Shown: in pieces, positions 1,522 to 27,770 of the stretch
Layout of the letters: each line of letters opens with the position of its first letter
Numbering within the stretch: the stretch's first letter is position 1
Position numbers and translations under genes: made by a program
IMG/VR virus record: IMGVR_UViG_3300027976_000150
Span: 1-29,284 of that record
DNA: 29,284 bases
Strand: one strand, 5' to 3'
From: a virus
The notes under the pieces: model-generated
The model's input: the letters and a program-made list of their open reading frames with translations, nothing else
What the model was told of the DNA's origin: nothing
Database searches by the model: none

Positions 1522-2949
1522 ATGATAATAGGAGTAGAAGTACAGGACCATGATTTAATGATTTCTTATTATGATGCTAATGGAAAGATAGCATACATAC
1601 GGAAACGTTTAGCCGACCATGAGATATTTAACTGGGCACCAGCTGATAAGCCATCATTACATAAAAATTGGGACGGGGCTAATATACGACAAGATAAGTC
1701 TGATCCTAAGTGGTTAACTCGAACTAGATTAGAAGAATTGATAATTGAAAAATTAACTCCGGACGAGCGTGCGCTCATTTACAACTTTGATAATCACCCT
1801 AACAAAGAATATATTGATATTGAGATATTACTAACAGATGATACTTTTCCTAAACCAGAAGAAGCAAAGATGCCTGTTGGAATGATATCATTCGGTAATG
1901 AAGATGGCGTTAACTATATATTATCTATCATGCGATCCGATGAATTTCCTAACGGTATTGGAAAACCTGAAATCGAGAAAATGGAACTTGAAGTAAATCA
2001 ATATTTCAAAAATACAATTCCACATGATCCAAGAGATAGAAAGATACTAGATCAAAACTTCACGGTAAAGTACATGTTCTTTGAAACGGAGAAAGAGTTA
2101 ATGGAATTTTATTTCCATAAAATAGCACCTCGTCAAGCATTTTTAACAGGATGGAATGTAATTGACTTTGATTGGCAATACTTAATGAACCGATCATCTA
2201 AAATAGGAGTAGATTCATTACAAAATATGACATCTAGGAAGACCTTTTCTAAGAGACATAAGTTACCAACCCATACGGGTATAGTTGATTACATGCAACT
2301 CTTTATTGATCCTGGATATAAACCTTACCAAGTTGTTGAAAATACAACACTTGATTATATATCAAACAAAGCATTAAACACAAGTAAGCTTAAACATCCT
2401 TATAATAGTTTCAGAGAATTTCAAAAAGATTTATACATGTTTACTCTATACAATATAATTGATAATATCCTTGTTAAATTATTAGAGGATAAATTTGGAT
2501 TACTAGATGTAGCGTTTTCAGTGGCAAATATAGCAGAAGTAGAAGTTAATAAGATTTTTAGTCCGGTGCATATAACTGAGGTTTTAATGTGCCGTCAATT
2601 CCTTAAAACTAATCAGAAAATGCTTAAGAAACCATGGGAAAGTAAAAAGGAAGAAGACTCAACATATGCGGGAGCGTATGTAATGCCTCCTGTTCCAGGT
2701 TATTATAAATTTGTATCATGTTATGATTTTAAATCAATGTACCCTAATATACAAATGCAGTTCAATTGTTCTCCTGATACGTATCTAGGTAAGATTGGAA
2801 TGATAAAGGAAAATGGAACTGAGATTAAAACTAAAAATGATACACTATTTAATAGTCAAAAAGATTCGGTTGCACGTTTAATTCTAGAAAAACTATATAA
2901 TGCTAGAATAGAAGCACAGGATGAAATAAAAGATTTAAAATTCAACTAG
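1522..2949 (+). CDS. 43A: DNA polymerase family B, N-terminal/exonuclease part (gp43A-like)
   Basis: This 475-residue protein aligns by motif with T4 gp43. Exo I is IDIEI (D99, E101; T4 D112, E114). Exo II is GWNVIDFDWQYLMNR (D217). Exo III is YNIID (Y310, D314; T4 Y323, D327). Polymerase motif A is CYDFKSMYPNIQ (D402; T4 D408), followed by NCSPDTYLG, which matches T4 NISPETI. The frame then runs through the finger-helix region (LEKLYNARIEAQ) and stops. Motif B (KxxxNSxYG), motif C (DTDS) and the thumb are absent, and T4 gp43 is 898 aa. The protein therefore has the complete 3'-5' exonuclease but only half of the palm. Split gp43A/gp43B polymerases are known in other T4-like phages; the B part is not in this window. 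No intein N-fragment is present at the end. Confidence 0.9.
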   Translation: MIIGVEVQDHDLMISYYDANGKIAYIRKRLADHEIFNWAPADKPSLHKNWDGANIRQDKSDPKWLTRTRLEELIIEKLTPDERALIYNFDNHPNKEYIDIEILLTDDTFPKPEEAKMPVGMISFGNEDGVNYILSIMRSDEFPNGIGKPEIEKMELEVNQYFKNTIPHDPRDRKILDQNFTVKYMFFETEKELMEFYFHKIAPRQAFLTGWNVIDFDWQYLMNRSSKIGVDSLQNMTSRKTFSKRHKLPTHTGIVDYMQLFIDPGYKPYQVVENTTLDYISNKALNTSKLKHPYNSFREFQKDLYMFTLYNIIDNILVKLLEDKFGLLDVAFSVANIAEVEVNKIFSPVHITEVLMCRQFLKTNQKMLKKPWESKKEEDSTYAGAYVMPPVPGYYKFVSCYDFKSMYPNIQMQFNCSPDTYLGKIGMIKENGTEIKTKNDTLFNSQKDSVARLILEKLYNARIEAQDEIKDLKFN

Positions 2950-4457: not shown

Positions 4458-4769
4458 ATGTCGAAAGCAACAGATTTAATATCAGCATTCAGTCGATTCA
4501 GTACTGATCTTGAGAAAACAACAAAGAAAAGAGTAAAACTTAAAGGATTCTCAGATGTCACTGAATATATCCCATCTGGCAACTATTTATTAAACGCCCA
4601 ATTATCGGGATCACTTAGAGGGGGATATCCAAATGCAAGAAGTTTAGGTATTGGTGGAGATTCCGGATGTTTAATAAAAAGTGAAAAGATTCTAATATAT
4701 AAAATAAAGAGTAAGGAGATATTCAGAAATGTATTCGATGAAAAATCTACAGAACCTATTCAAGATTAA
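4458..4769 (+). CDS. uvsX: UvsX recombinase N-terminal part fused to split-intein N-fragment
   Basis: Residues 1-70 are the N-terminal part of a UvsX/RecA-type recombinase: VTEYIPSGNYLLNAQLSGSL then GIGGDSG, the first half of the Walker A loop. At residue 71 (codon 4668-4670) a Cys begins an intein N-fragment, CLIKSEKILIYKIKSKEIF, only 33 residues long before the stop. The extein resumes at 6479 in another gene as TGKTF, so splicing would restore GDSG-TGKTF. UvsX forms the presynaptic filament on ssDNA for strand exchange, so the break through the P-loop means neither half can bind ATP unspliced. A normal intein N-fragment is about 100 residues and includes block B; here block B lies on the other piece, making this an atypical split. 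The 3' end overlaps the endonuclease gene by 41 bases. Confidence 0.88.
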   Translation: MSKATDLISAFSRFSTDLEKTTKKRVKLKGFSDVTEYIPSGNYLLNAQLSGSLRGGYPNARSLGIGGDSGCLIKSEKILIYKIKSKEIFRNVFDEKSTEPIQD

Positions 4770-6478
4770 TAGAGTTAAATATCATAGCTCTCCATTATCA
4801 TTTACTGAGTATTTTAATATAATTAGTGATAATATTAAATTATTAAATGTTATCAATCCTAATAAATTTGTGAAACATTATAATTTATATGTCGAATTAT
4901 TTAATCATCATAGTAAATTAATATCACCAATACGCGAAGTAGCTAGACCTACTTCGCTTGGTTTTTATAGCATTTCTAATTCAAATATTAATTATTACAT
5001 CACACGAGGATGGAGTAAATTTAAAGCTATTAAAATGCTAAAGGATAGGCAATCTACTTGGAGAATTAATAATGTAATGTTATCAAATGAATGTGATAAG
5101 AATACTGCTATTGATATCGTAACTAATAGATCTAAATTAGTTACTGCTAAAATTAAAAACAGACAAGATTACGACGATATATGTAAATCTAAAGGTAATT
5201 CTAATAGATGGGAGTTTTATATTGATAAGATTAATCCAGAAACTAATTTAAAGTACACTGAATTAGAATCAAGGGAAAAGATTAGAATAAAACAGTCAAT
5301 GGGTCCGATTAAATTTTGGAAAGATGTAAGAGATGGCAGGAAATATTATACTGCCCCTACTAGTTTACAATACTTTTTAAATAATGGAATATCGATGATG
5401 GATGCTAAGAAGGCATTATATGAAAGGCAACATACATTTTCACTTGATATATGCATAGAGAAACATGGTGAGATTAAAGGATTGAAAATTTTCAATAAAC
5501 GTCAAGAAAAATGGCAAAATAATTTAAATAGTAAATCTGTTGAGGAACTACTTGACATTAAGATTAGAAAATTATCAAATCATAATGTCAAGTTCTACTC
5601 TAATGAGTCCGCTATATTTTTTGATGATATAATAGATGTACTTAGATCTGATTATAAATTAGAATTAAATGATATAAGATATAAAGAAAAAGAGCATTTT
5701 ATAGTAGACGAAAATAATAAAATATTCTTTTATGATTTATGTATTCCATCACTTAATATAATAATAGAATACAATGGATCTCATGTTCATCCTAATAAAC
5801 ATAGACTAAGTGAACATGAATGGAACAATTGGAAATCTGCGTATTCCAAAGAGTCATCTGATTTCGTATATAAAAAAGATCAATACAAGCTAAACCTAGC
5901 TGTAAATAACGGGTATAAAATATATGAAATATGGGATACTGATAATAAAATTGATAGTATTGATATGTTTTGCAAAATAATAAAAACTAAATATGATAAA
6001 AGTCGAAAAGATAACCGAACTTAAGGAATTTTATTCAGATTCTGAATTAGAAATACTATTAACTAATAAGAATATTGACGAGGTATTTAATGATCATGTA
6101 TCTCAATATTCAGAGGAGATTGAAATATACGATCTATTCAAAGATGATACTTATGTTAATAATGGATTATTAATAGACACGCCTGATGGATTTCAAGAAG
6201 TCGGTGACTTCTATCGAAAATCCCCTAGGTCATGTTACGAGATTAATACTGAAAATGGCCATACGTTAAGTGGATCACTTGATCATTTAATAGAGACCCA
6301 ACGTGAAGGCAATTGGATAAAGGCTGGCGATCTTAATATAAATGATGAAGTGATTACGCTAGATGGCCTATCAAAAATTTCATCCAAACAATTATTAGAT
6401 GAACAGGAGGTATTTGACTTCGAAGTATTACATGATAATCATAGATATTGGGGCGGGACTGGAATATCATCACATAAT
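4668..6478 (+). mobile_element. Split intein with inserted homing-endonuclease gene in uvsX P-loop
   Basis: The unit consists of a 33-residue IntN (4668-4766), an endonuclease gene (4729-6024) in a second frame, and a 162-residue IntC (5993-6478) in a third frame, ending ISSHN before Thr. The three frames differ and overlap at both joints, so a continuous intein cannot be read. Intein block B-like sequence (HTLSGSLDHLIET) and the C-terminal blocks (VFDFEVLHDNHRYWGG, HN) are on the IntC piece. This matches the 'fractured gene' arrangement described in metagenomic phage DNA, with an atypically placed split as in AceL-TerL-type inteins. Confidence 0.85.
4729..6024 (+). CDS. Vsr-like (EDxHD-type) homing endonuclease inside the uvsX intein
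   Basis: This is a 431-aa protein. Residues about 100-310 hold diverged DNA-binding repeats of the form 'Y...rGwS...A...L..RQstw' (near 110 and again near 220, YFLNNGISMMDAKKALYERQ) followed by 'KHGEIKGLKIFNKRQEKWQ'. The C-terminal nuclease domain from about residue 330 has FFYDLCIPSLNIIIEYNG then SHVHP (D336, E347, H352, H354), the Vsr-like PD-(D/E)xK core of EDxHD homing endonucleases, and ends with NNGYKIYEIWDTDN. The same domain occurs in the gene at 25588-26523. AAGGAG at 4713-4718, 10 bases before the ATG, is one of few Shine-Dalgarno-like sites and supports this start. The gene overlaps IntN by 41 bases and the IntC gene by 32. It presumably cuts intein-free uvsX to spread the element. 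Confidence 0.8.
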   Translation: MYSMKNLQNLFKINRVKYHSSPLSFTEYFNIISDNIKLLNVINPNKFVKHYNLYVELFNHHSKLISPIREVARPTSLGFYSISNSNINYYITRGWSKFKAIKMLKDRQSTWRINNVMLSNECDKNTAIDIVTNRSKLVTAKIKNRQDYDDICKSKGNSNRWEFYIDKINPETNLKYTELESREKIRIKQSMGPIKFWKDVRDGRKYYTAPTSLQYFLNNGISMMDAKKALYERQHTFSLDICIEKHGEIKGLKIFNKRQEKWQNNLNSKSVEELLDIKIRKLSNHNVKFYSNESAIFFDDIIDVLRSDYKLELNDIRYKEKEHFIVDENNKIFFYDLCIPSLNIIIEYNGSHVHPNKHRLSEHEWNNWKSAYSKESSDFVYKKDQYKLNLAVNNGYKIYEIWDTDNKIDSIDMFCKIIKTKYDKSRKDNRT

Positions 6479-7483
6479 ACTGGAAAAACATTTTTATGTC
6501 TTAATGCAATAAAAAATGCCCAAGATATTGGATATGCAGTATTCTATATTGATACAGAGGGTGCACTAGATAAAAAAGATTTCGTTAATTTTGGAATTAA
6601 TATGGATCTTTTAAATTACAAGAGAATCGGAATTATATCAGAGGTTAAATTCTTCGTTTATGATATAATTCAGATGAAAGAGAATAATCCCGATTTAAAA
6701 ATAATGATTATTGTAGATTCACTTACTCATCTTGAGACTAATAAAGAAGTTGAAGATATTGCAAAGGGAAGTAATGCGCAAGACATGGGTCTTAGAGCCA
6801 AAGAACTTAGACAACTATTCAAATCATTCACTCTAGATTTATCAAACCTTAAGGTTCCATTAATTTTTACATCACACACTTATTCTAGTATGGACAAATA
6901 TAATCCTAAGGCTATGTCTGGAGGATCTGGTCCATTATATTCCGCATCGGTTGTACTTATGTTAAGCCGCGGAGTACTTAAAGGAGAAGATGACGTTGAA
7001 TCAAATGCGGATCCTAAGGAAAAAACAGGAGTAAAAGTTAGGAGCAATACTGATAAAAACCGTTTAGCTAAACCTGAAAAGATTGAATTTCATATTAGTT
7101 TTCATAAAGGTATGAATCCATATGTTGGATTACAAGATTACTTAAGCTGGGAAAATTGTGGAGTAGAAAGAGGTAATAAACTTACTGAAACAGAATTCTC
7201 AAAATTAAAGGGAGCTGAATCTGAATCGTGTAGTATGTTCGAAGTGAACGGAGAAACATTTTATTTTTTACCAAAAGCGGCTGCTCGTAATTTCATCATC
7301 AAATTCAATGGAGATGTTGTACCGTGGAGAGAGATATTCTCAAGTAGAGTATTCACAGACGCAGTAATAGATGAATTAGATAAAAATGTAATTCAACCTA
7401 AATTTAAATATAGCTCATTAGCTGATGTTGAAGCTGCTGAATTAATTGAATTACAAATGGAAGACGACGAAGATGGAGCTTAG
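5993..7483 (+). CDS. uvsX: Split-intein C-fragment fused to UvsX C-terminal part
   Basis: This is a 496-aa protein. Residues 1-162 are intein. An N-terminal extension of about 50 residues comes first, then LLIDTPDGFQEVGDFYRK, the block B-like GHTLSGSLDHLIETQ (H98), WIKAGDLNINDEVIT, and C-terminal blocks VFDFEVLHDNHRYWGG and SSHN (H161, N162). T163 is the first extein residue (codon 6479), giving TGKTFLCLNA, the second half of Walker A. The rest is classic UvsX: VFYIDTEGALD, Walker B IMIIVDSLTHLE, the DNA-loop region SGGSGPLYSASVVLML and an acidic tail (QMEDDEDGA). The spliced UvsX would be 70 + 334 = 404 aa, close to T4 UvsX (391). The start overlaps the endonuclease end by 32 bases. Confidence 0.88.
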   Translation: MIKVEKITELKEFYSDSELEILLTNKNIDEVFNDHVSQYSEEIEIYDLFKDDTYVNNGLLIDTPDGFQEVGDFYRKSPRSCYEINTENGHTLSGSLDHLIETQREGNWIKAGDLNINDEVITLDGLSKISSKQLLDEQEVFDFEVLHDNHRYWGGTGISSHNTGKTFLCLNAIKNAQDIGYAVFYIDTEGALDKKDFVNFGINMDLLNYKRIGIISEVKFFVYDIIQMKENNPDLKIMIIVDSLTHLETNKEVEDIAKGSNAQDMGLRAKELRQLFKSFTLDLSNLKVPLIFTSHTYSSMDKYNPKAMSGGSGPLYSASVVLMLSRGVLKGEDDVESNADPKEKTGVKVRSNTDKNRLAKPEKIEFHISFHKGMNPYVGLQDYLSWENCGVERGNKLTETEFSKLKGAESESCSMFEVNGETFYFLPKAAARNFIIKFNGDVVPWREIFSSRVFTDAVIDELDKNVIQPKFKYSSLADVEAAELIELQMEDDEDGA

Positions 7484-19984: not shown

Positions 19985-21772
19985 ATGAAACATAGTATAG
20001 AAGATAAATATAGAAAACTAACAGACATTGAGCATGTACTCGCAAGAAGTTCAATGTATGTTGGATCTACTGAACCACACACTGGAAATCACCATATATT
20101 TGACGGTGATAATATTGAACTAAAAAAAGTAACATACAACCCTGCATTTCTAAAAATATTTGATGAAATACTATCAAACTCAGTAGATGAACATCGTAAA
20201 ACCAAAAGCCTAAACGAGATAAAGGTAACATTCAACCTAGATTCAGGAGAAATAAAGGTTTGGGATAATGGCGGAATACCTGTAAAAAGGCATTCCACGC
20301 ATAAAGAATGGATTCCTGAAATGATATTCGCTAATTTAAAAGCTGGAAGTAGTTTTGATGATAGTAAAGACCGTGATACGGCTGGTACAAATGGAGTAGG
20401 CGCAACATTAACTAACATATTCAGTACTAAGTTTATTATTAAAACATGTGACGGAACAGATAGGTTCGAGCAAACGTTCACCAATAACATGAATAAGCGA
20501 TCTACCGCTAAAATCAGCAAATCTACTAAGAATTTTACAGAAATATCATACACTCCGGATCTACCTAGATTCCAAATGAAAAAAATCGATGATATTAGTT
20601 ATAAAATATTATATAAACGATGCGCTGACGCGGCTGCATGTAATCCTAGACTTAAGATTAAGGTATCAACAGTAAAAGATGGACACTCGACATCAAAGGA
20701 TGTTAAATTTAGAAAATTTGAAGACTATATTAAATTATATGTTAATGATGAATATTTCTATGAAGATTCAAAGGATTGGAGAATTGGATTTGCAAAATCA
20801 CAAGATGGATTCAATAACATTAGCTTTGTAAACTCTGTACATACAAAAGAAGGAGGAACACACGTAGATTATATTACGAATCAACTAATATCACACTTAA
20901 GAGATATGATAAAAAATAAACATAAAGTTGATGTTAAACCTAATGATATTCGTAACCACTTATATGTATTCATTGATTGTATGGTGGTAAACCCAGCATT
21001 CTCATCTCAAACCAAAGAGAAACTAATCACTGAGACTAGAAAATTTAAAACATCACATGATGTAACTGAATCTATAGCCAAAAGGATATTTAAATCTGAG
21101 ATAATTCAATCTGTTCTAGACTGGGTTGAACGAAAACATGCAGCAGATGAACGTGCAGAACTTAGAAAACTCAATAAGTCTCTTGACAGAGGAAGAGTTG
21201 GTAAATTAATCGATGCGCAAAAGAAGGGTGATAGATCTAAATGTATACTTGGAGTATATGAAGGAATGTGCATAGATGAAGATACTGAAATTATAGTAAT
21301 GAGAGGCGGTTTAATTTCTAATATAAAGATTAAAAATATAAACATAAATGACTGTGTTATATCATGCGATAATAAAATAGAAGAAGTATACCAGGTCTCT
21401 AAGAAAATAGAAAAATCTAAAACTATAAAATTAACTGACGGATCACATATTAAGTTATCGGAAAATCACAGGTTATTTATATACAATTCAAATACTGAAA
21501 CTTTTGAATATATAAAGGTTAAAAATATAAACATAAATGTTCATAAGATTGTTAAGAACAAACTATGTAACATAGATTCATTTAACCTAATAGTTAAGAA
21601 TGAACTGATACTAGATAAATACAATTTAATATTAGATAATGGTGAAATTATTGTATCATCTCATGATACTAAGATTTGTGTATTTGATAAACTTGAACAT
21701 TCATTTAGTATGGTACCCGCTGAAGATATACGTGAAGATTTACATGTATTTATTGGATTTACAAAAATATGA
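19985..21772 (+). CDS. 39: DNA topoisomerase II large subunit N-part (gp39-like) fused to split-intein N-fragment
   Basis: This is a 595-aa protein. Residues 1-428 are a GHKL-ATPase/transducer: FDEILSNSVDEHRK (N-box, Mg/ATP), VWDNGGIPV, AGTNGVGATLTNIFS (ATP lid), then the transducer and the start of the Toprim domain, RSKCILGVYEGM. At C429 (codon 21269-71) an intein N-fragment begins, CIDEDTEIIVMRGG, with a block B-like IKLTDGSHIKLSENHRLF. IntN is 167 residues and appears to contain a second, diverged copy of its block B region. The extein resumes at 22106 with SALSAVRKF; splicing gives EGM-SA, the catalytic EGxSA of Toprim. The T4-type topoisomerase acts in replication initiation and untangling. 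The stop codon lies in a 20-base palindrome. The start has no Shine-Dalgarno. Confidence 0.88.
   Translation: MKHSIEDKYRKLTDIEHVLARSSMYVGSTEPHTGNHHIFDGDNIELKKVTYNPAFLKIFDEILSNSVDEHRKTKSLNEIKVTFNLDSGEIKVWDNGGIPVKRHSTHKEWIPEMIFANLKAGSSFDDSKDRDTAGTNGVGATLTNIFSTKFIIKTCDGTDRFEQTFTNNMNKRSTAKISKSTKNFTEISYTPDLPRFQMKKIDDISYKILYKRCADAAACNPRLKIKVSTVKDGHSTSKDVKFRKFEDYIKLYVNDEYFYEDSKDWRIGFAKSQDGFNNISFVNSVHTKEGGTHVDYITNQLISHLRDMIKNKHKVDVKPNDIRNHLYVFIDCMVVNPAFSSQTKEKLITETRKFKTSHDVTESIAKRIFKSEIIQSVLDWVERKHAADERAELRKLNKSLDRGRVGKLIDAQKKGDRSKCILGVYEGMCIDEDTEIIVMRGGLISNIKIKNININDCVISCDNKIEEVYQVSKKIEKSKTIKLTDGSHIKLSENHRLFIYNSNTETFEYIKVKNININVHKIVKNKLCNIDSFNLIVKNELILDKYNLILDNGEIIVSSHDTKICVFDKLEHSFSMVPAEDIREDLHVFIGFTKI
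21322..21350 (+). repeat. 29-base direct repeat within IntN, copy 1
   Basis: The 29 bases 21322-21350 match 21511-21539 at 28 positions and encode IKIKNININ here. The copies are 189 bases apart (63 codons, in frame). See the finding on the IntN duplication. Confidence 0.8.
21511..21539 (+). repeat. 29-base direct repeat within IntN, copy 2
   Basis: Second copy of the repeat at 21322-21350, with one mismatch, encoding IKVKNININ. Confidence 0.8.
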
Positions 21773-21786
21773 AGGCGCCTTCATAT
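21767..21786 (+). terminator. Perfect 20-base palindrome at the IntN stop codon
   Basis: ATATGAAGGC followed by its exact reverse complement GCCTTCATAT. The TGA stop of the large-subunit N-part lies inside it. Because there is no loop, an RNA hairpin would open the central bases (GGCGCC). It may terminate transcription or shield the upstream mRNA. Its last three bases overlap the late octamer TATAAATA that follows. Confidence 0.45.
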
Positions 21787-21791
21787 AAATA
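21784..21791 (+). promoter_or_regulatory. Putative late promoter (TATAAATA) for the insert ORF
   Basis: An exact T4 late consensus TATAAATA lies 33 bases before the ATG at 21817, overlapping the right arm of the palindrome at 21767-21786. The equivalent place in the small-subunit gene (25562-25569) also has a late octamer just downstream of a hairpin. Confidence 0.5.
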
Positions 21792-21816
21792 AGAATCAAA
21801 ATTAACAATTTATCAT

Positions 21817-21987
21817 ATGTTTAGTATAAAAAGTGGATTTATAAGTGGTATAAATCCAGATATAATAGGTAATATAGAAAATATAGATTATATTACTAAA
21901 TCTAAAAATTCAAGTAAAAGATCAGATAATTCAATTGAATTATCTGAATTATTATTAAACGTAAAAACATCAAAATATGGAGAATAA
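21817..21987 (+). CDS. 56-codon ORF between the intein halves, possible endonuclease remnant
   Basis: ATG at 21817, TAA at 21985-87. The product begins MFSIKSGFISGINPDIIGNI and ends ELLLNVKTSKYGE; it is Ser/Asn/Lys-rich. It occupies the place where the other two split inteins carry a complete endonuclease gene. The 'KSGF.SGINP..IGN' pattern looks like a short DNA-binding module of the NUMOD kind, but no nuclease residues are present. It overlaps the IntC gene by 11 bases, as a live upstream gene would for coupling. It may be a remnant or a tiny active protein. Confidence 0.4.
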   Translation: MFSIKSGFISGINPDIIGNIENIDYITKSKNSSKRSDNSIELSELLLNVKTSKYGE

Positions 21988-22684
21988 TTTTCTGCAACTT
22001 TGTGATATTGAATCTATTGAAGATTCAGGATACGCAAATATGGTTGACATAGGAGTAAATGGCGATGCCACGTTTATACTGGCTAATGGAATAATGTCAC
22101 ATAACTCAGCACTATCAGCCGTGCGTAAGTTTAGGAACACACAGGAAATGGGAGCGTTTCCACTAAAGGGAAAATTCATAAATGTTCATGAACTACCTAA
22201 TTCAAAGGTTATTCAAAACGAAGAAGTAAAAGGATTAATGGGATCGATTGGTCTTAAATTAGGAGAAGATCCTATCAATTTAAGATATGGTAAAGTATAC
22301 ATATACACCGATGCAGATCCTGATGGAAACTCAATTGCGGGTCAATTAATAAACTTCTTTGCTAAATATTGGCCAGAATTATTTGAAAAAGGTATAATAT
22401 ATAAAGTTATGACTCCATTGGTTGTAGCTAAAAAAGGAAAGCAAATGGAGACCTTTTATACTAACAGTGAATATCAGATTTGGTCATATAAGAAATCTAT
22501 TAATGTTTCATCGTGGGAGATAGAATATAAAAAGGGATTAGCGTCACTCGACGATAGGGAATATGAAGAAATATTAAATAATCCTGCCATTGTACAAATT
22601 ACATATGATAAAGAAGCTAGACATTCCTTAGAAGCATGGTTTGGAAAAGACTCCAATCTTAGAAAGGATCGACTTTTAAGATAA
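21977..22684 (+). CDS. 60: Split-intein C-fragment fused to topoisomerase II large subunit C-part (gp60-like)
   Basis: This is a 235-aa protein. Residues 1-43 are IntC, ending NGDATFILANGIMSHN (H42, N43). S44 is the +1 residue. The C-extein SALSAVRKFRNTQEMGAFPL then KGKFINVHELP continues the Toprim fold, with the metal-binding DxD in YIYTDADPDGNSIAG. The final LEAWFGKDSNLRKD parallels the end of T4 gp60 (LFEMLMGDNADLRKE), so the C-terminus is complete. The spliced protein would be 428 + 192 = 620 aa, similar to T4 gp39 + gp60. Neither half alone has a full Toprim site, so activity requires trans-splicing or close association. The gene is followed by a hairpin/promoter element and a free-standing HNH endonuclease. 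Confidence 0.88.
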   Translation: MENNFLQLCDIESIEDSGYANMVDIGVNGDATFILANGIMSHNSALSAVRKFRNTQEMGAFPLKGKFINVHELPNSKVIQNEEVKGLMGSIGLKLGEDPINLRYGKVYIYTDADPDGNSIAGQLINFFAKYWPELFEKGIIYKVMTPLVVAKKGKQMETFYTNSEYQIWSYKKSINVSSWEIEYKKGLASLDDREYEEILNNPAIVQITYDKEARHSLEAWFGKDSNLRKDRLLR

Positions 22685-22727: not shown

Positions 22728-23486
22728 ATGGCAAGTGGAAGAAGATTAACAACAACTGAAATAGTGATACGATTTAAAGAAATGCACGGAGACCGATATA
22801 ATTATGATAATGTAGAATATGATATGCTCCATACTAAAGTATCAATACTATGTGATAGACATGGAGAATTTGAACAAACTCCTAAAAATCACTTACGTGG
22901 TCAAAATTGTAGAAAGTGTTATTTAGAAGATACTAATGGTAAATTCATGAAAGATCCTATTTGGAGAAAGTGGGCATCTGATAATATGAAGATGAATATC
23001 GATAAACTTAGACACGGAATGATCGATAAATATGGAGAGGAATATCCAATGCGAGTTGAAAGTATACGTGATACTATTAAAGATACAATAACAAGCAGAT
23101 ATGGAGTTGAAAATCCATATCAGTTAAATGTAGAATCTAGAATACAAAAAGCTAAACAGACTAAAATTAATAATGGAGATTGGATATCAGATGAAAACCG
23201 TAAGCCCTTTGATTTATATAAGAAGAAAGTATGGTGTGCAACTAATAAATCTATACTTAAATATAATGCAGGATGGTTACTAGAAGGTAGATCTAGGACT
23301 GGAAATCATCTAGATCATATACATTCAATATTTGAAGGATTTAAAAAATGTATTAACCCTAATATAATAGGTCACGTGTTAAATCTTCAAATACTAGATG
23401 CAAAGATCAATAGGAGTAAAGGCATAGAATCATGGATAACAATAGAAGAATTAAACAAAAACATAGAAAAATTTAATAAAACATGA
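22728..23486 (+). CDS. Free-standing HNH homing endonuclease
   Basis: This is a 252-aa protein. The N-terminal module contains 'HGDRYNYDNVEYDMLHTKV' followed by ILCDRHGEFEQTPKNHLRGQ then CRKC, a Cys/His module common in phage homing endonucleases ('C..HG.F...p..H..G..C..C'). The middle has two repeats of the type 'm..kYGeeyPmrve' and 'tsRYGVENPYQLN', which also occurs in the gene at 25588 (LARYGVDNISKS). The C-terminal nuclease part GNHLDHIHSIFEGF then INPNIIGHVLNLQIL fits an HNH fold (DH pair near residue 195 and later N/H). It lies just after the intact end of the topoisomerase large subunit, not inside a gene, so it resembles T4 mob/seg genes. The 3' end overlaps the next ATG by 4 bases. 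Confidence 0.78.
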   Translation: MASGRRLTTTEIVIRFKEMHGDRYNYDNVEYDMLHTKVSILCDRHGEFEQTPKNHLRGQNCRKCYLEDTNGKFMKDPIWRKWASDNMKMNIDKLRHGMIDKYGEEYPMRVESIRDTIKDTITSRYGVENPYQLNVESRIQKAKQTKINNGDWISDENRKPFDLYKKKVWCATNKSILKYNAGWLLEGRSRTGNHLDHIHSIFEGFKKCINPNIIGHVLNLQILDAKINRSKGIESWITIEELNKNIEKFNKT

Positions 23487-24556: not shown

Positions 24557-25009
24557 TTGAAAAAATTTGGTTTTATTCCAACATTTATAGAAAAAATAAA
24601 AAGTTACCATGCATTTAACATTACTATGTCCGCTTTGACTGAAAATAAAAAAATCGATATAGAATACGGATATCATTATTCTGATCGTAAGAACATCGAA
24701 AATATAATGGAAAATGGACTAATTCCTACTAATTCATTAAATAGTAAATCACTTGTAGGTTCTCCATGGGATGATAATATTCTAATAAACGGATTATATG
24801 AAGATCCTAGAGTTTATTTTTTTACTAGGATAGATGATGCAGATGCAGCATTGATGTTTAGCAATTCTAATCTAGTGCGCTTCAAAATAGATTTACGTAA
24901 AATTCCGACGTATGTTGACAATTTAATGATAGGAGACGAAGATGACATTGTAGAATCAATTTGGACAAATAGTAAAATTAATACAAATAATATTAAATAT
25001 GAAGGATAA
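24557..25009 (+). CDS. Possible ADP-ribosyltransferase-like protein, start uncertain
   Basis: From a TTG at 24557 the product is 150 aa. EYGYHYSDRKNIENIMENGL then IPTNSL, RVYFFTRIDDADAALMFSNS and LVRFKIDLRKIP resemble the 'yH.t...n...Il.nGL.p......vYf....' layout of small ART/Tpt1-like folds; the catalytic residues are not certain. The frame is open back to 24458 with coding-like sequence (IIRISDFDLIDHPDKIVFD) but no ATG or GTG start. An ATG at 24451 in a neighbouring frame reads MIAYKW then TAA, so the true start may have been lost by a one-base frameshift near 24469. The end overlaps the topoisomerase small-subunit start by 11 bases. Confidence 0.45.
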   Translation: MKKFGFIPTFIEKIKSYHAFNITMSALTENKKIDIEYGYHYSDRKNIENIMENGLIPTNSLNSKSLVGSPWDDNILINGLYEDPRVYFFTRIDDADAALMFSNSNLVRFKIDLRKIPTYVDNLMIGDEDDIVESIWTNSKINTNNIKYEG

Positions 25010-25535
25010 TGCAACAATAACAGAATACCTAGATACCGATTATCATGAGTATGCTAAGTATGTGATTGAACACCGTGCTATACCGTCAATTATTGATGGA
25101 TTAAAGCCAACACAGCGTAAAGTAGTATACATCGCTAATAAAGTTTGGAAGAACGGAAATGAAAAACCATATAAAGTATTCCAACTTACCGGACTAATAG
25201 CAGCCCGTGCACACTACCATCATGGTGACTGTCTTGATCCTAATACTGAGATATTACTAAGTGACGGTTCATATATCACAATACATGAATGGTTTGAAAA
25301 ATATCGAGATACTAAACTTAAAGTTTTAGCATTTGATGAATCTACTAATAAATTTGTAGAAGCAATCGGTCATTCTCCTAGGATAGGTCAAGTTACTAAT
25401 CTTGAGTATGAAATTGAAATGGAAGATGGTAGTATATTCAAATGTACAGACAATCATCCGTTCTTAACTCAGCGCGGATGGATTAAAGCTAAAGATTTAG
25501 AGGAAGATGATGACATATTAAATTTAAAATCATAA
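24999..25535 (+). CDS. 52: DNA topoisomerase II small subunit N-part (gp52-like) fused to split-intein N-fragment
   Basis: This is a 178-aa protein. Residues 1-77 are the start of a GyrA/gp52-type breakage-reunion domain: YAKYVIEHRAIPSIIDGLKP then TQRKVVYIANKVW and ARAHYHHGD, the counterpart of GyrA 'YHPHGD'. C78 (codon 25230-32) starts a 101-residue intein N-fragment, CLDPNTEILLSDGSYI, with KLKVLAFDESTNKFVEA, block B CTDNHPFLTQRGWIKAKDLE and end DDILNLKS. This resembles the NrdJ-1/gp41-1 class of fast split inteins in length and in the LAF..T.....A and CT..HP patterns. The extein resumes at 26640 with SSLNSAII. A hairpin and a late promoter octamer follow the stop. Confidence 0.88.
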   Translation: MKDNATITEYLDTDYHEYAKYVIEHRAIPSIIDGLKPTQRKVVYIANKVWKNGNEKPYKVFQLTGLIAARAHYHHGDCLDPNTEILLSDGSYITIHEWFEKYRDTKLKVLAFDESTNKFVEAIGHSPRIGQVTNLEYEIEMEDGSIFKCTDNHPFLTQRGWIKAKDLEEDDDILNLKS

Positions 25536-25538
25536 TCC

Positions 25539-25552
25539 ATCACCTTGGTGAT
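25539..25552 (+). terminator. Short hairpin after the IntN stop
   Basis: ATCACC-TT-GGTGAT lies 3 bases after the stop codon of the small-subunit N-part and 9 bases before the late octamer. The 6-bp complement would open to a larger loop in RNA. The position is the same as that of the palindrome at 21767 in the large-subunit gene. Confidence 0.35.
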
Positions 25553-25561
25553 ATTTAGCCT

Positions 25562-25569
25562 AATAAATA
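25562..25569 (+). promoter_or_regulatory. Putative late promoter octamer (AATAAATA) for the endonuclease gene
   Basis: AATAAATA followed by AAATAAAA, 26 bases before the ATG at 25588. The octamer is identical to those ahead of the sheath and tube genes. It would let the endonuclease be expressed late, separately from the early topoisomerase transcript. Confidence 0.5.
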
Positions 25570-25587
25570 AAATAAAAGCTATCAATC

Positions 25588-26523
25588 ATGGGGTTAAAAT
25601 GTGAAAATTGCAATATGATATATAATAACAGTCCATATCTAAATATTAATAGAATCAATAACAGTCCTATTAGATTTCTACATACATGTAAGGAATGTAG
25701 AAAAATTAAGAGATGTGGAAATTGTAATAGTGAATTTAAACATTATCAAAATCAAACGTGTTCTAAAAAATGTGCAGCCAACCTAAAGGAGAAAACATAT
25801 ATGTTAACACAGGGAGCTCCGCATAACTTTTCTAAGAATTCGAAATCTAAAATTAAAATGCAATTAGAACTACTAGAAAATGAAGGAATATCTAATGTTT
25901 TTCAAAGGGATACGGTAAAGGATTCAATTGAAGCTACTATGTTGGCACGATACGGTGTAGATAATATATCGAAATCTGATGATATTAAAACTAAAAAGAA
26001 AGAAACACTTCGTCAAACACTAATAGATAATCCAGATTTACTTAAGAACCAATGGTGGGATAGACATCATCGATTCATCAAAGATATAGGATATGATCCA
26101 AGATTAGGCGTATTCGGAAAAGCGTCAATTGAGTCAATGTTAATATTTAATCCAATATCTAAATTATGCAAATCGTTAGGAATACTAGAATCTGATATAT
26201 ACATAGGACATGGTACTAAGTCTGAATATTTCATTAATACCGGTACTAAAACATATTTCTATGATTTCTGTATTAGATCTAGAAATATAATAATTGAATA
26301 TCACGGTATCGGATTTCATGCAAATCCTACATGGGAATTGACTAAGTTAAATGAATGGAAATCTGCATTTACTAATGAGACATCAAGTGAGAATATTAGA
26401 AAGACTAAAATAAAAAATAATGTAGCGATTAATAAAGGATTCAAGATTCTTGAAATATGGAGTGATTCCGATATAGAAAACAATATTAATTTGTGTAAAG
26501 CATTTATAAATGATAACATATGA
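25588..26523 (+). CDS. Vsr-like (EDxHD-type) homing endonuclease inside the topoisomerase small-subunit intein
   Basis: This is a 311-aa protein. The N-terminal Cys-rich zinc modules are CENCNMIY, CKECRK, CGNC and CSKKC (to about residue 65). A DNA-binding repeat 'TMLARYGVDNISKSDDIK' lies near residue 130, also present in the HNH enzyme at 22728. The nuclease domain from about 222 has YFYDFCIRSRNIIIEYHG then IGFHANP (D226, E237, H244), followed by LNEWKSAFTNE and NKGFKILEIWSDSD. The nuclease domain is clearly related to that of the uvsX-intein endonuclease (4729-6024): both share FYD.CI.S.NIIIEY.G, EW..WKSA/EWKSAF and GYKI/GFKI.EIW. The N-terminal DNA-binding halves are unrelated, as expected for enzymes with different targets. 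It has its own late octamer; the stop overlaps the IntC start by 4 bases. Confidence 0.82.
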   Translation: MGLKCENCNMIYNNSPYLNINRINNSPIRFLHTCKECRKIKRCGNCNSEFKHYQNQTCSKKCAANLKEKTYMLTQGAPHNFSKNSKSKIKMQLELLENEGISNVFQRDTVKDSIEATMLARYGVDNISKSDDIKTKKKETLRQTLIDNPDLLKNQWWDRHHRFIKDIGYDPRLGVFGKASIESMLIFNPISKLCKSLGILESDIYIGHGTKSEYFINTGTKTYFYDFCIRSRNIIIEYHGIGFHANPTWELTKLNEWKSAFTNETSSENIRKTKIKNNVAINKGFKILEIWSDSDIENNINLCKAFINDNI

Positions 26524-27770
26524 AAATAAAATCTATTAAAATAAACAATCTAGAATCTCCTAAGAAATTCTATGATATAACCGTAGATAAGCATCATAAT
26601 TTTGTAATTGGTCGCAACTCTAAAATAGTAACACACAATTCTTCTCTTAATTCGGCAATCATCGGAATGGCACAAAAGTTTAAAAATTCGATGCCGCTAC
26701 TTAAAGAAATCGGTCAGTTTGGATCGTTACGATCACCTGACGCAGGAGCGCCTCGATATGTTTCTACTAAACTACATGAGAATTTTAGATTAATATATAA
26801 GGACTTTGAATTATTATCTCCGAGATATGAAGAAGGGTCCCAGATTGAACCCGAATACTTCCTTCCAATAATTCCTACTGTACTATTAAACGGATCCTCA
26901 GGTATAGCCGTAGGCTTCGCTACATCAATCCTAAATCGTAATCCCTTAGAATTAATCGAATGTTGCTTAAAGGAATTAAACGGAAAAGGATTTAAAGAAC
27001 CTACGCCGTGGATCAATGGATTTAATGGTGAGGTTGTACCGAATCCAGATAGCGAAAACTCATGGTTATTTAGAGGAAAATACGAATTGAAAAATACAAC
27101 GACTATTCATATAACTGAATTACCACCATCTGTTACATATGAAAAGTTCGATAGCTATATGAATGAATTAGAGGATGATAAGCGAATATCATCATACGAT
27201 AACAATTGTAAATCTGATATAAACTATACTATCAAAATGAGCAGATCGACGCTAACTGGCCTTCATGCAGGTAATAAGATTAGTAGGTTCTTAAAGATGG
27301 AGGAGAAACAAACTGAAAACTTCACGGTACTTGATGAATTTGGAAAACTAAAGATATTTAATAGTGCGACTGATATAATTAAATACTTTGTTAAATTTAG
27401 AATGGAGTTTTACATTAAGCGCAAAGCGTTTATAATCGACAAGATAAAACGTGAATTACTTAATCTTTCTAACAAGGCTAGATTTATTAAGATGATTATC
27501 GACGGAAAATTAAAAATCAACAATGTTGCTAGATTAGTGTTAATTGGAGAATTAACTAAATATAAATTCGATGAAATAGATGGATCATTCTCGTATCTAC
27601 TATCAATGGCAATTCATACTCTTACTAAAGAAAAATACCAAGAATTATTAAATCAAGAGTCTGATAAAAATAAGGAATTAGTTAATATGCGAAAACTTCA
27701 ACCTACTGATATGTATATAACGGACTTGGGAGATCTTAAAAAGGTACTGAAGAAGGAGTATAATAATTAA
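26520..27770 (+). CDS. 52: Split-intein C-fragment fused to topoisomerase II small subunit C-part (gp52-like)
   Basis: This is a 416-aa protein. Residues 1-40 are IntC (KFYDITVDKHHNFVIGRNS then KIVTHN, H39 N40); S41 is the +1 residue. The extein SSLNSAIIGMAQKF is the GyrA 'S.y...v.MAQ.f' helix. Then come IGQFGSLRSPDAGAPRYVST with the catalytic Tyr (Y80; residue 117 after splicing, close to T4 gp52 Tyr116), LPIIPTVLLNGSSGIAVGFA (GyrA 'LP..P..L.NG..GIAVGMA') and a C-terminal coiled-coil dimer region. The spliced protein would be 77 + 376 = 453 aa (T4 gp52 is 442), so it is complete. It nicks and religates DNA with the large subunit. The next gene follows after 3 bases. Confidence 0.9.
   Translation: MKIKSIKINNLESPKKFYDITVDKHHNFVIGRNSKIVTHNSSLNSAIIGMAQKFKNSMPLLKEIGQFGSLRSPDAGAPRYVSTKLHENFRLIYKDFELLSPRYEEGSQIEPEYFLPIIPTVLLNGSSGIAVGFATSILNRNPLELIECCLKELNGKGFKEPTPWINGFNGEVVPNPDSENSWLFRGKYELKNTTTIHITELPPSVTYEKFDSYMNELEDDKRISSYDNNCKSDINYTIKMSRSTLTGLHAGNKISRFLKMEEKQTENFTVLDEFGKLKIFNSATDIIKYFVKFRMEFYIKRKAFIIDKIKRELLNLSNKARFIKMIIDGKLKINNVARLVLIGELTKYKFDEIDGSFSYLLSMAIHTLTKEKYQELLNQESDKNKELVNMRKLQPTDMYITDLGDLKKVLKKEYNN

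What the first reader, a model, noticed from the sequence alone, without database searches (positions are those of the whole stretch)
24999..27770. Topoisomerase small subunit fractured at YHHGD/S by a gp41-1/NrdJ-1-like split intein with a nested Vsr-like endonuclease
IntN is 101 aa and IntC 40 aa, with all terminal residues intact (Cys1, HxxL-like block B, His-Asn, Ser+1). The sizes and sequence style match the fastest known trans-splicing inteins. A fractured topoisomerase gp52 is not an arrangement I know as standard.
Basis: partly seen in the sequence, partly recalled or inferred. Interest (0 to 1): 0.82.

Follow-up and report, generated by a model that had tools for sequence, protein, structure and literature searches.

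The report
Split-intein fractured phage topoisomerase gene gp52
A phage gene for one half of a DNA-untangling enzyme is broken in two by a mobile element whose two protein-splicing halves should rejoin the enzyme after translation; the arrangement is a known kind ("fractured genes"), here in a host gene for which I found no earlier description, with clear DNA evidence that the element jumps between phages.

Summary
Gene 52 (T4-type topoisomerase II, GyrA/ParC homologue) is broken at YHHGD|SSLN into gp52N-IntN (24999-25535, 77+101 aa) and IntC-gp52C (26520-27770, 40+376 aa), with a 311-aa nuclease gene between (25588-26523). The intein halves pass NCBI's curated intein N- and C-terminal models. 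All residues needed for splicing are present, and they are invariant in 9 fractured alleles compared. In 80 viral loci examined, 67 carry an uninterrupted gp52 joined exactly at this site and 13 are fractured. One fractured relative, L083, differs by about 30% in the exteins but only 4-11% inside the element, with the step exactly at the intein edges; synonymous divergence is saturated outside and 0.17-0.40 inside. Fractured and intact alleles are interleaved on the gp52 tree. This is a laterally spreading element under purifying selection. The nuclease has a Vsr/I-Bth0305I-like fold; relatives sit between split-intein halves in gp39, gp41, uvsX and ribonucleotide reductase. The closest solved intein is NrdJ-1, not gp41-1. 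It is a new member of the "fractured gene" class (Dassa 2009). Splicing, its speed and DNA cleavage remain untested. uvsX and gp39 are also fractured in this window.

The parts
24999..25229 (+). gp52N: N-extein, residues 1-77 of the topoisomerase II medium subunit, ending YHHGD
   Evidence: PF00521 E 1.6e-13, phrog_551 E 1.8e-22; joins gp52C exactly in intact relatives
25230..25535 (+). IntN: 101-aa N-half of split intein (Cys1; block B TDNH) and stop codon
   Evidence: TIGR01445 intein_Nterm from residue 78, 51.4 bits vs cut-off 24.5; C1, T73, H76 invariant in 9 alleles
25536..25587 (+). Intergenic spacer with late-promoter-like TAATAAATA (25561-25569)
   Evidence: ATAAATA columns invariant in 6 alleles; motif over-represented upstream of this nuclease family but not in the window as a whole
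25588..26523 (+). Nested Vsr-like homing endonuclease: N-terminal zinc-finger-like CxxC repeats, C-terminal catalytic domain
   Evidence: 39-member family with invariant S180, E213, D226, E237, H244; AlphaFold2 model matches Vsr 1cw0 (prob 0.98) and I-Bth0305I 3r3p (prob 0.91); dN/dS about 0.15
26520..26639 (+). IntC: 40-aa C-half of split intein ending VTHN
   Evidence: TIGR01443 intein_Cterm 30.0 bits vs cut-off 15.6; D120, H127, H140, N141 invariant
26640..27770 (+). gp52C: C-extein beginning with Ser+1, rest of the topoisomerase medium subunit
   Evidence: PF00521 E 2.7e-66, phrog_551 E 1.8e-111

Best explanation
A mobile split-intein/homing-endonuclease element sits in gene 52 of a T4-superfamily phage. 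The three reading frames are made separately from one gene cluster. IntN and IntC associate, cut themselves out and join gp52N to gp52C at HHGD-SSLN, giving a normal topoisomerase medium subunit. The nested Vsr-like nuclease cuts intein-free gp52 alleles of co-infecting phages near the same site, so repair copies the whole element in; the two intein halves make the insertion harmless. The insertion point lies in the conserved DNA-gate motif (HPHGDS of GyrA, at about D82|S83 of E. coli GyrA), so imprecise loss should be lethal. Shown: anatomy, intact splicing residues, exact empty site, lateral spread, purifying selection, nuclease fold, decay of the nuclease in some alleles. Inferred: that splicing happens and how fast, that the nuclease cuts the empty site, and that spliced topoisomerase is active.
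For: Curated intein models hit both halves. Splicing residues are invariant in 9 alleles. Exact empty sites: 67 of 80 loci joined with 0 extra bases, 13 fractured, no unsplit intein at this site. Nucleotide identity of window vs L083: gp52N 71%, IntN 95%, spacer 90%, nuclease 89%, IntC 96%, gp52C 68%, with the step at the intein edges; dS 0.17 (IntN), 0.40 (nuclease), 0.20 (IntC) vs 1.5 to saturated in exteins. Tree: 10 fractured rows need 9 changes of state (at least 7 forced by well-supported branches), no more clustered than shuffled labels. Residue +1 is Ser in all fractured alleles but S/T/G/A in intact ones (Fisher p 0.014), including the close pair L009 (occupied, Ser) / L032 (empty, Gly). 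Purifying selection: dN/dS about 0.17, 0.15 and 0.05 in IntN, nuclease and IntC. Nuclease fold. Same nuclease family between intein halves of gp39, gp41, ribonucleotide reductase and uvsX. Decay stage: L042 keeps both intein halves but only a 44-aa nuclease remnant.
Against: No expression, splicing or cleavage data. The contig is a 29-kb fragment, so an intact second gp52 elsewhere in the genome is not strictly excluded, although longer fractured relatives (up to 462 kb) have only the one copy. Fold matches of the nuclease have modest E-values (0.02-0.09). The tree is a quick one and includes three distant long-branch rows.
Confidence: 0.9

Rival explanations
1. The halves do not splice; gp52N-IntN and IntC-gp52C simply associate, as split T4 gp39/gp60, Aeh1 NrdA and phage-25 gp43 do, and the intein is a relic.
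For: Nuclease insertions that leave functional non-covalent split enzymes are documented in T4-like phages (PMC2988022).
Against: All splicing residues are invariant in 9 divergent alleles; both halves are under strong purifying selection; intein halves persist where the nuclease has decayed (L042, L085), as expected if splicing is needed for gp52 function; the Ser+1 requirement is always met.
Confidence: 0.05
2. The break is removed at RNA level (group I or II intron, or other RNA processing) and the hint-like sequence is incidental.
For: Group I introns with nested nucleases are common in phages, and Vsr-like nucleases occur in introns (own knowledge).
Against: No Rfam family, intron families included, matches the locus at E<=1; curated intein models match both sides exactly at the breaks.
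Confidence: 0.01
3. Sequencing or assembly artefact, or a dead pseudogene.
For: Single-contig metagenome sequence.
Against: Same arrangement in 13 contigs and in LR756500.1; all three frames open and under purifying selection.
Confidence: 0.01
4. The intein splices but the nuclease is not the homing enzyme for this site (passenger or regulatory gene); spread came by ordinary recombination.
For: Cleavage untested; some alleles carry degraded nuclease (L042, L085).
Against: The sharp identity step at both element edges against saturated flanks is what double-strand-break homing gives and flank-dependent recombination would not; the nuclease co-travels at a similar divergence to the intein; the family recurs inside split inteins of several genes.
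Confidence: 0.08

Closest known systems
Fractured genes (Dassa, London, Stoddard, Schueler-Furman, Pietrokovski, NAR 2009, doi 10.1093/nar/gkp095)
   Same: A phage replication/repair gene broken in two by a split intein with a free-standing nuclease gene between the halves; Vsr-related nuclease family (content from own knowledge; the title was seen in reference lists; the paper is not held).
   Different: Host gene here is gp52; whether topoisomerase is among that paper's host enzymes (eight types, as I remember) could not be checked.
NrdJ-1 split intein (PDB 8ubs)
   Same: Closest solved relative of the joined IntN+IntC profile, E 9.1e-14 over nearly the whole length; similar split position.
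   Different: Host is ribonucleotide reductase; sequence only distantly related; splicing rate of the gp52 intein unknown.
gp41-1 split intein (PDB 6qaz)
   Same: Same fold class and split position; gp41-1-like loci with the same nuclease family exist (L122: 6qaz E 1.5e-25).
   Different: Weak sequence relation to the gp52 intein (E 3.6e-6).
I-Bth0305I (3r3p) and Vsr endonuclease (1cw0)
   Same: Catalytic-domain fold match, Foldseek probabilities 0.91 and 0.98.
   Different: Low sequence similarity (profile E 0.15-0.64); conserved residues are E213, D226, E237, H244 with no invariant final Asp; extra N-terminal zinc-finger-like region.
Fractured uvsW of Salmonella phage S16 (gp114 / gp114.1 / gp115)
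   Same: Cultured T4-like phage with an IntN-like tail on gp114 (profile E 1.6e-19), a third ORF in between, and an IntC-like start on gp115.
   Different: Different host gene; the middle ORF does not match the Vsr-like profile.

Membership tests
Inteins (split, class 1) | N-terminal splicing region starting with Cys/Ser, block B TxxH | tested here: met
   TIGR01445 51.4 bits (cut-off 24.5) starting at C78 of ORF 1; C1, T73, H76 invariant in 9 alleles
Inteins (split, class 1) | C-terminal splicing region ending His-Asn followed by Ser/Thr/Cys | tested here: met
   TIGR01443 30.0 bits (cut-off 15.6); THN|S in window, H140-N141-S142 invariant in 9 alleles
Inteins (split, class 1) | Insertion leaves the host reading frame exactly restorable | tested here: met
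   0-base junction in 67 of 80 loci at the same residue
Inteins (split, class 1) | Protein trans-splicing activity | not testable with these tools
   needs co-expression
Fractured genes (Dassa 2009) | Conserved enzyme gene broken by split intein with a free-standing nuclease gene between | tested here: met
Fractured genes (Dassa 2009) | Vsr-related nuclease (in part of the loci) | tested here: met
   top fold hits 1cw0, 1vsr, 3r3p
EDxHD homing endonucleases (I-Bth0305I) | E-D-x-H-D catalytic motif | tested here: inconclusive
   E213, D226, E237, H244 invariant in 39 members; no invariant last Asp seen
EDxHD homing endonucleases (I-Bth0305I) | Vsr-like fold of the catalytic domain | tested here: met
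   3r3p prob 0.91, TM normalised by target 0.58
Homing elements | Lateral transfer of element without flanks | tested here: met
   identity step at element edges, dS contrast, interleaved tree
Homing elements | Nuclease cleaves the empty allele | not testable with these tools
   needs purified protein
gp41-1 / NrdJ-1 ultrafast inteins | Close sequence relationship | tested here: inconclusive
   NrdJ-1 E 9e-14, gp41-1 E 4e-6: related, not close
gp41-1 / NrdJ-1 ultrafast inteins | Splicing within seconds to minutes | not testable with these tools
   kinetics required
Group I/II intron | Conserved ribozyme structure | tested here: not met
   no Rfam match

The most novel reading that the evidence does not exclude
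gp52 is a previously undescribed host gene and insertion site (the GyrA HPHGD|S motif) for an actively homing, always-split intein. In this phage the topoisomerase (both gp39 and gp52) and the recombinase UvsX each depend on separate, non-cross-reacting trans-splicing reactions, so early DNA metabolism is gated by three protein-splicing steps.
Probability: 0.45. Interest if true: 0.55.

Novelty: new member of a known kind. Interest (0 to 1): 0.45.

Why it matters
It adds a conserved DNA-gate enzyme to the genes in which natural split inteins live and supplies a set of 9-11 diverged natural IntN/IntC pairs at one site, useful for comparing trans-splicing rate and partner specificity. It also gives one of the cleaner natural records of homing: occupied and empty alleles, a recent transfer with edges visible to tens of bases, a probably co-converted +1 Ser, and alleles with a decayed nuclease. 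No unsplit intein was found at this site, which bears on how split inteins arise.

Tried and rejected
RNA intron: no Rfam hit. Conserved RNA hairpin controlling nuclease translation in the gp52 spacer: single-sequence fold not better than shuffles (z -0.6) and no covariation, so not claimed; strong hairpins over the nuclease start exist only in gp41 relatives (L148, L167). Late promoter in the window as a whole: TATAAATA is not over-represented; it is enriched only upstream of this nuclease family (8 of 31 vs 6% of control ORFs), with the caveat of shared ancestry. Profile search of the nuclease with 8 close members gave nothing useful; the wider 39-member set and a fold comparison were needed. 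Defining paper of fractured genes not held; literature searches for fractured or intein-bearing gp52 found none. Second gp52 gene sought and not found.

Full report
1. What is there. The window is a 29,284-base IMG/VR virus record with T4-type replication genes. Three consecutive plus-strand frames cover the finding. Frame 1 (24999-25535) is gp52 residues 1-77 followed by a 101-residue intein N-half. Frame 2 (25588-26523) is a 311-residue nuclease. Frame 3 (26520-27770) is a 40-residue intein C-half followed by the remaining 376 residues of gp52; its ATG overlaps the stop of frame 2. Pfam, PHROGs and NCBIfam agree: topoisomerase (PF00521, phrog_551) is divided between frames 1 and 3, intein_Nterm TIGR01445 starts exactly at the break in frame 1 and intein_Cterm TIGR01443 ends at the break in frame 3, both above their curated cut-offs. 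TIGR01063 (gyrA) is covered to position 75 by frame 1 and from 76 by frame 3, so nothing of the enzyme is missing at the break.

2. Comparison with empty sites. Two scans of IMG/VR with the two halves and one with an alignment of fractured alleles gave many gp52 loci. In the last set 67 of 80 have N- and C-parts joined with zero extra bases at HHG[D/N]|[S/T/G/A], and 13 have 681-1465 extra bases at exactly that point. All 13 carry intein halves; none has an unsplit intein. The 13 contigs are about 11 distinct sequences; one equals LR756500.1, a 462-kb unannotated phage record. Among 50,697 phage records that is the only one with this fracture that I found. The most closely related intact alleles are about 75-78% identical to the window in nucleotides.

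3. Evidence of mobility. Against L083 the window's exteins are 68-71% identical in DNA, while IntN, spacer, nuclease and IntC are 95, 90, 89 and 96% identical; in 50-base steps the change falls at both intein edges. Synonymous divergence is 1.5 to saturated in exteins and 0.17-0.40 in the element, with dN/dS about 0.17 (IntN), 0.15 (nuclease) and 0.05 (IntC). On a tree of 58 gp52 exteins the fractured state changes 9 times (at least 7 required by strong branches), as scattered as shuffled labels. Residue +1 is Ser in every fractured allele, while intact alleles have Ser, Thr, Gly or Ala (Fisher p 0.014); in the close pair L009 (fractured) and L032 (intact, about 90% identical) Gly-Ser stands against Ser-Ser, which fits co-conversion of the +1 codon. 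L042 has kept the split intein but only a 44-residue zinc-finger remnant of the nuclease, and L085 has a frame-broken nuclease: the expected decay stages of a homing element whose intein the host gene still needs.

4. The intein. Nine alleles share Cys1, T73, H76, D120, H127, H140, N141 and Ser+1 without exception. The joined profile's best solved match is NrdJ-1 (8ubs, E 9.1e-14), then DnaE inteins; gp41-1 is much weaker (E 3.6e-6). So 'NrdJ-1-like' is fair and 'gp41-1-like' only in the broad sense. Speed cannot be inferred.

5. The nuclease. A family of 39 members collected with one scan keeps Ser180, Glu213, Asp226, Glu237 and His244 in all. The AlphaFold2 model (mean pLDDT 80; catalytic domain mostly above 90) matches Vsr (1cw0, probability 0.98) and the homing endonuclease I-Bth0305I (3r3p, 0.91) as its top hits, though with modest E-values. 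Profile search also ranks 3r3p and Vsr, weakly. Family members lie between intein halves of gp39 (L100-L106, L129), gp41 helicase (L122, L125, L128, L144, L148 and others), ribonucleotide reductase (L126, L132, L138, L140 and others), and of uvsX in this same window; a few are free-standing. L122's intein is a close relative of gp41-1, which ties this nuclease family to the loci from which the known fast split inteins came.

6. Insertion site. Intact relatives align with T4-type topoisomerase medium subunits and GyrA. From knowledge of GyrA, the break is between Asp82 and Ser83 (E. coli numbering) in the HPHGDS motif on the DNA gate, a different site from the mycobacterial GyrA intein near the catalytic Tyr. 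A conserved, essential site is what homing elements favour.

7. How it works. Shown: anatomy, residues, empty sites, spread, selection, fold. Inferred: trans-splicing restores gp52; the nuclease opens the empty allele so that repair copies the element. Alternatives (non-covalent assembly, RNA intron, artefact, passenger nuclease) are set out with their tests; none fits as well.

8. Place among known things. This is a member of the 'fractured gene' class named by Dassa and colleagues in 2009. That paper is not in the library, so whether it lists topoisomerase is not known to me. Searches found no report of a fractured or intein-bearing gp52; T4's own split topoisomerase gene (39/60, mobA) is a different, non-splicing break in the large subunit (PMC2988022). 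I therefore call it a new member of a known kind, of moderate interest, raised by the unusually clear homing record and by two further fractured genes in the same 29 kb.

Noticed in passing
window 4458-7483 (+): uvsX is also fractured, inside its Walker A motif (GGDSG|TGKT): IntN of only 33 aa (4668-4766), a nuclease of the same Vsr-like family (4729-6024), and an IntC of 162 aa (5993-6478) matching the atypically split intein VidaL (6vgv, E 1.9e-14).
   Followed up: partly
window 19985-22684 (+): gp39 (topoisomerase large subunit) is fractured too: gp39N 428 aa, IntN 167 aa with what look like two block-B-like repeats (21269-21769), IntC 43 aa (21977-22105). The spacer encodes a 53-aa remnant of an HNH nuclease (21817 onward; E 3e-10 to the HNH nuclease lying next to gp39C in LR756500). 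Residue -1 is Met (EGM|SALSAV) where intact homologues have EGDSA.
   Followed up: partly
window 22728-23486 (+): HNH-type nuclease (DUF7487, phrog_5104) directly downstream of gp39C; a relative lies just upstream of the IntC-gp39C frame in LR756500 (L169 2657-3778).
   Followed up: partly
gp39 loci L100, L101, L103, L105, L106, L129: gp39 split inteins with a long IntN (about 150-180 aa) that seems to contain a duplicated block-B segment, with the Vsr-like nuclease between the halves; looks like a conserved unusual intein architecture.
   Followed up: no
L148 4230-4335, L167 2840-2940: Strong RNA hairpins (z -5.5 and -7.8) cover the nuclease start codon with TATAAATA near the loop, like the late-promoter/hairpin control of T4 intron nucleases (from knowledge).
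   Followed up: partly
window 1522-2949 (+): DNA polymerase gp43 frame ends at residue 475 with no C-part beside it; matches phrog_2062 (N-half of split phage polymerases).
   Followed up: no
Salmonella phage S16 HQ331142.1 104626-107352 (L250): uvsW is fractured: gp114 ends in an IntN, gp115 begins with an IntC ending HN|C, and gp114.1 lies between; annotated only as helicase fragments and a hypothetical protein.
   Followed up: partly
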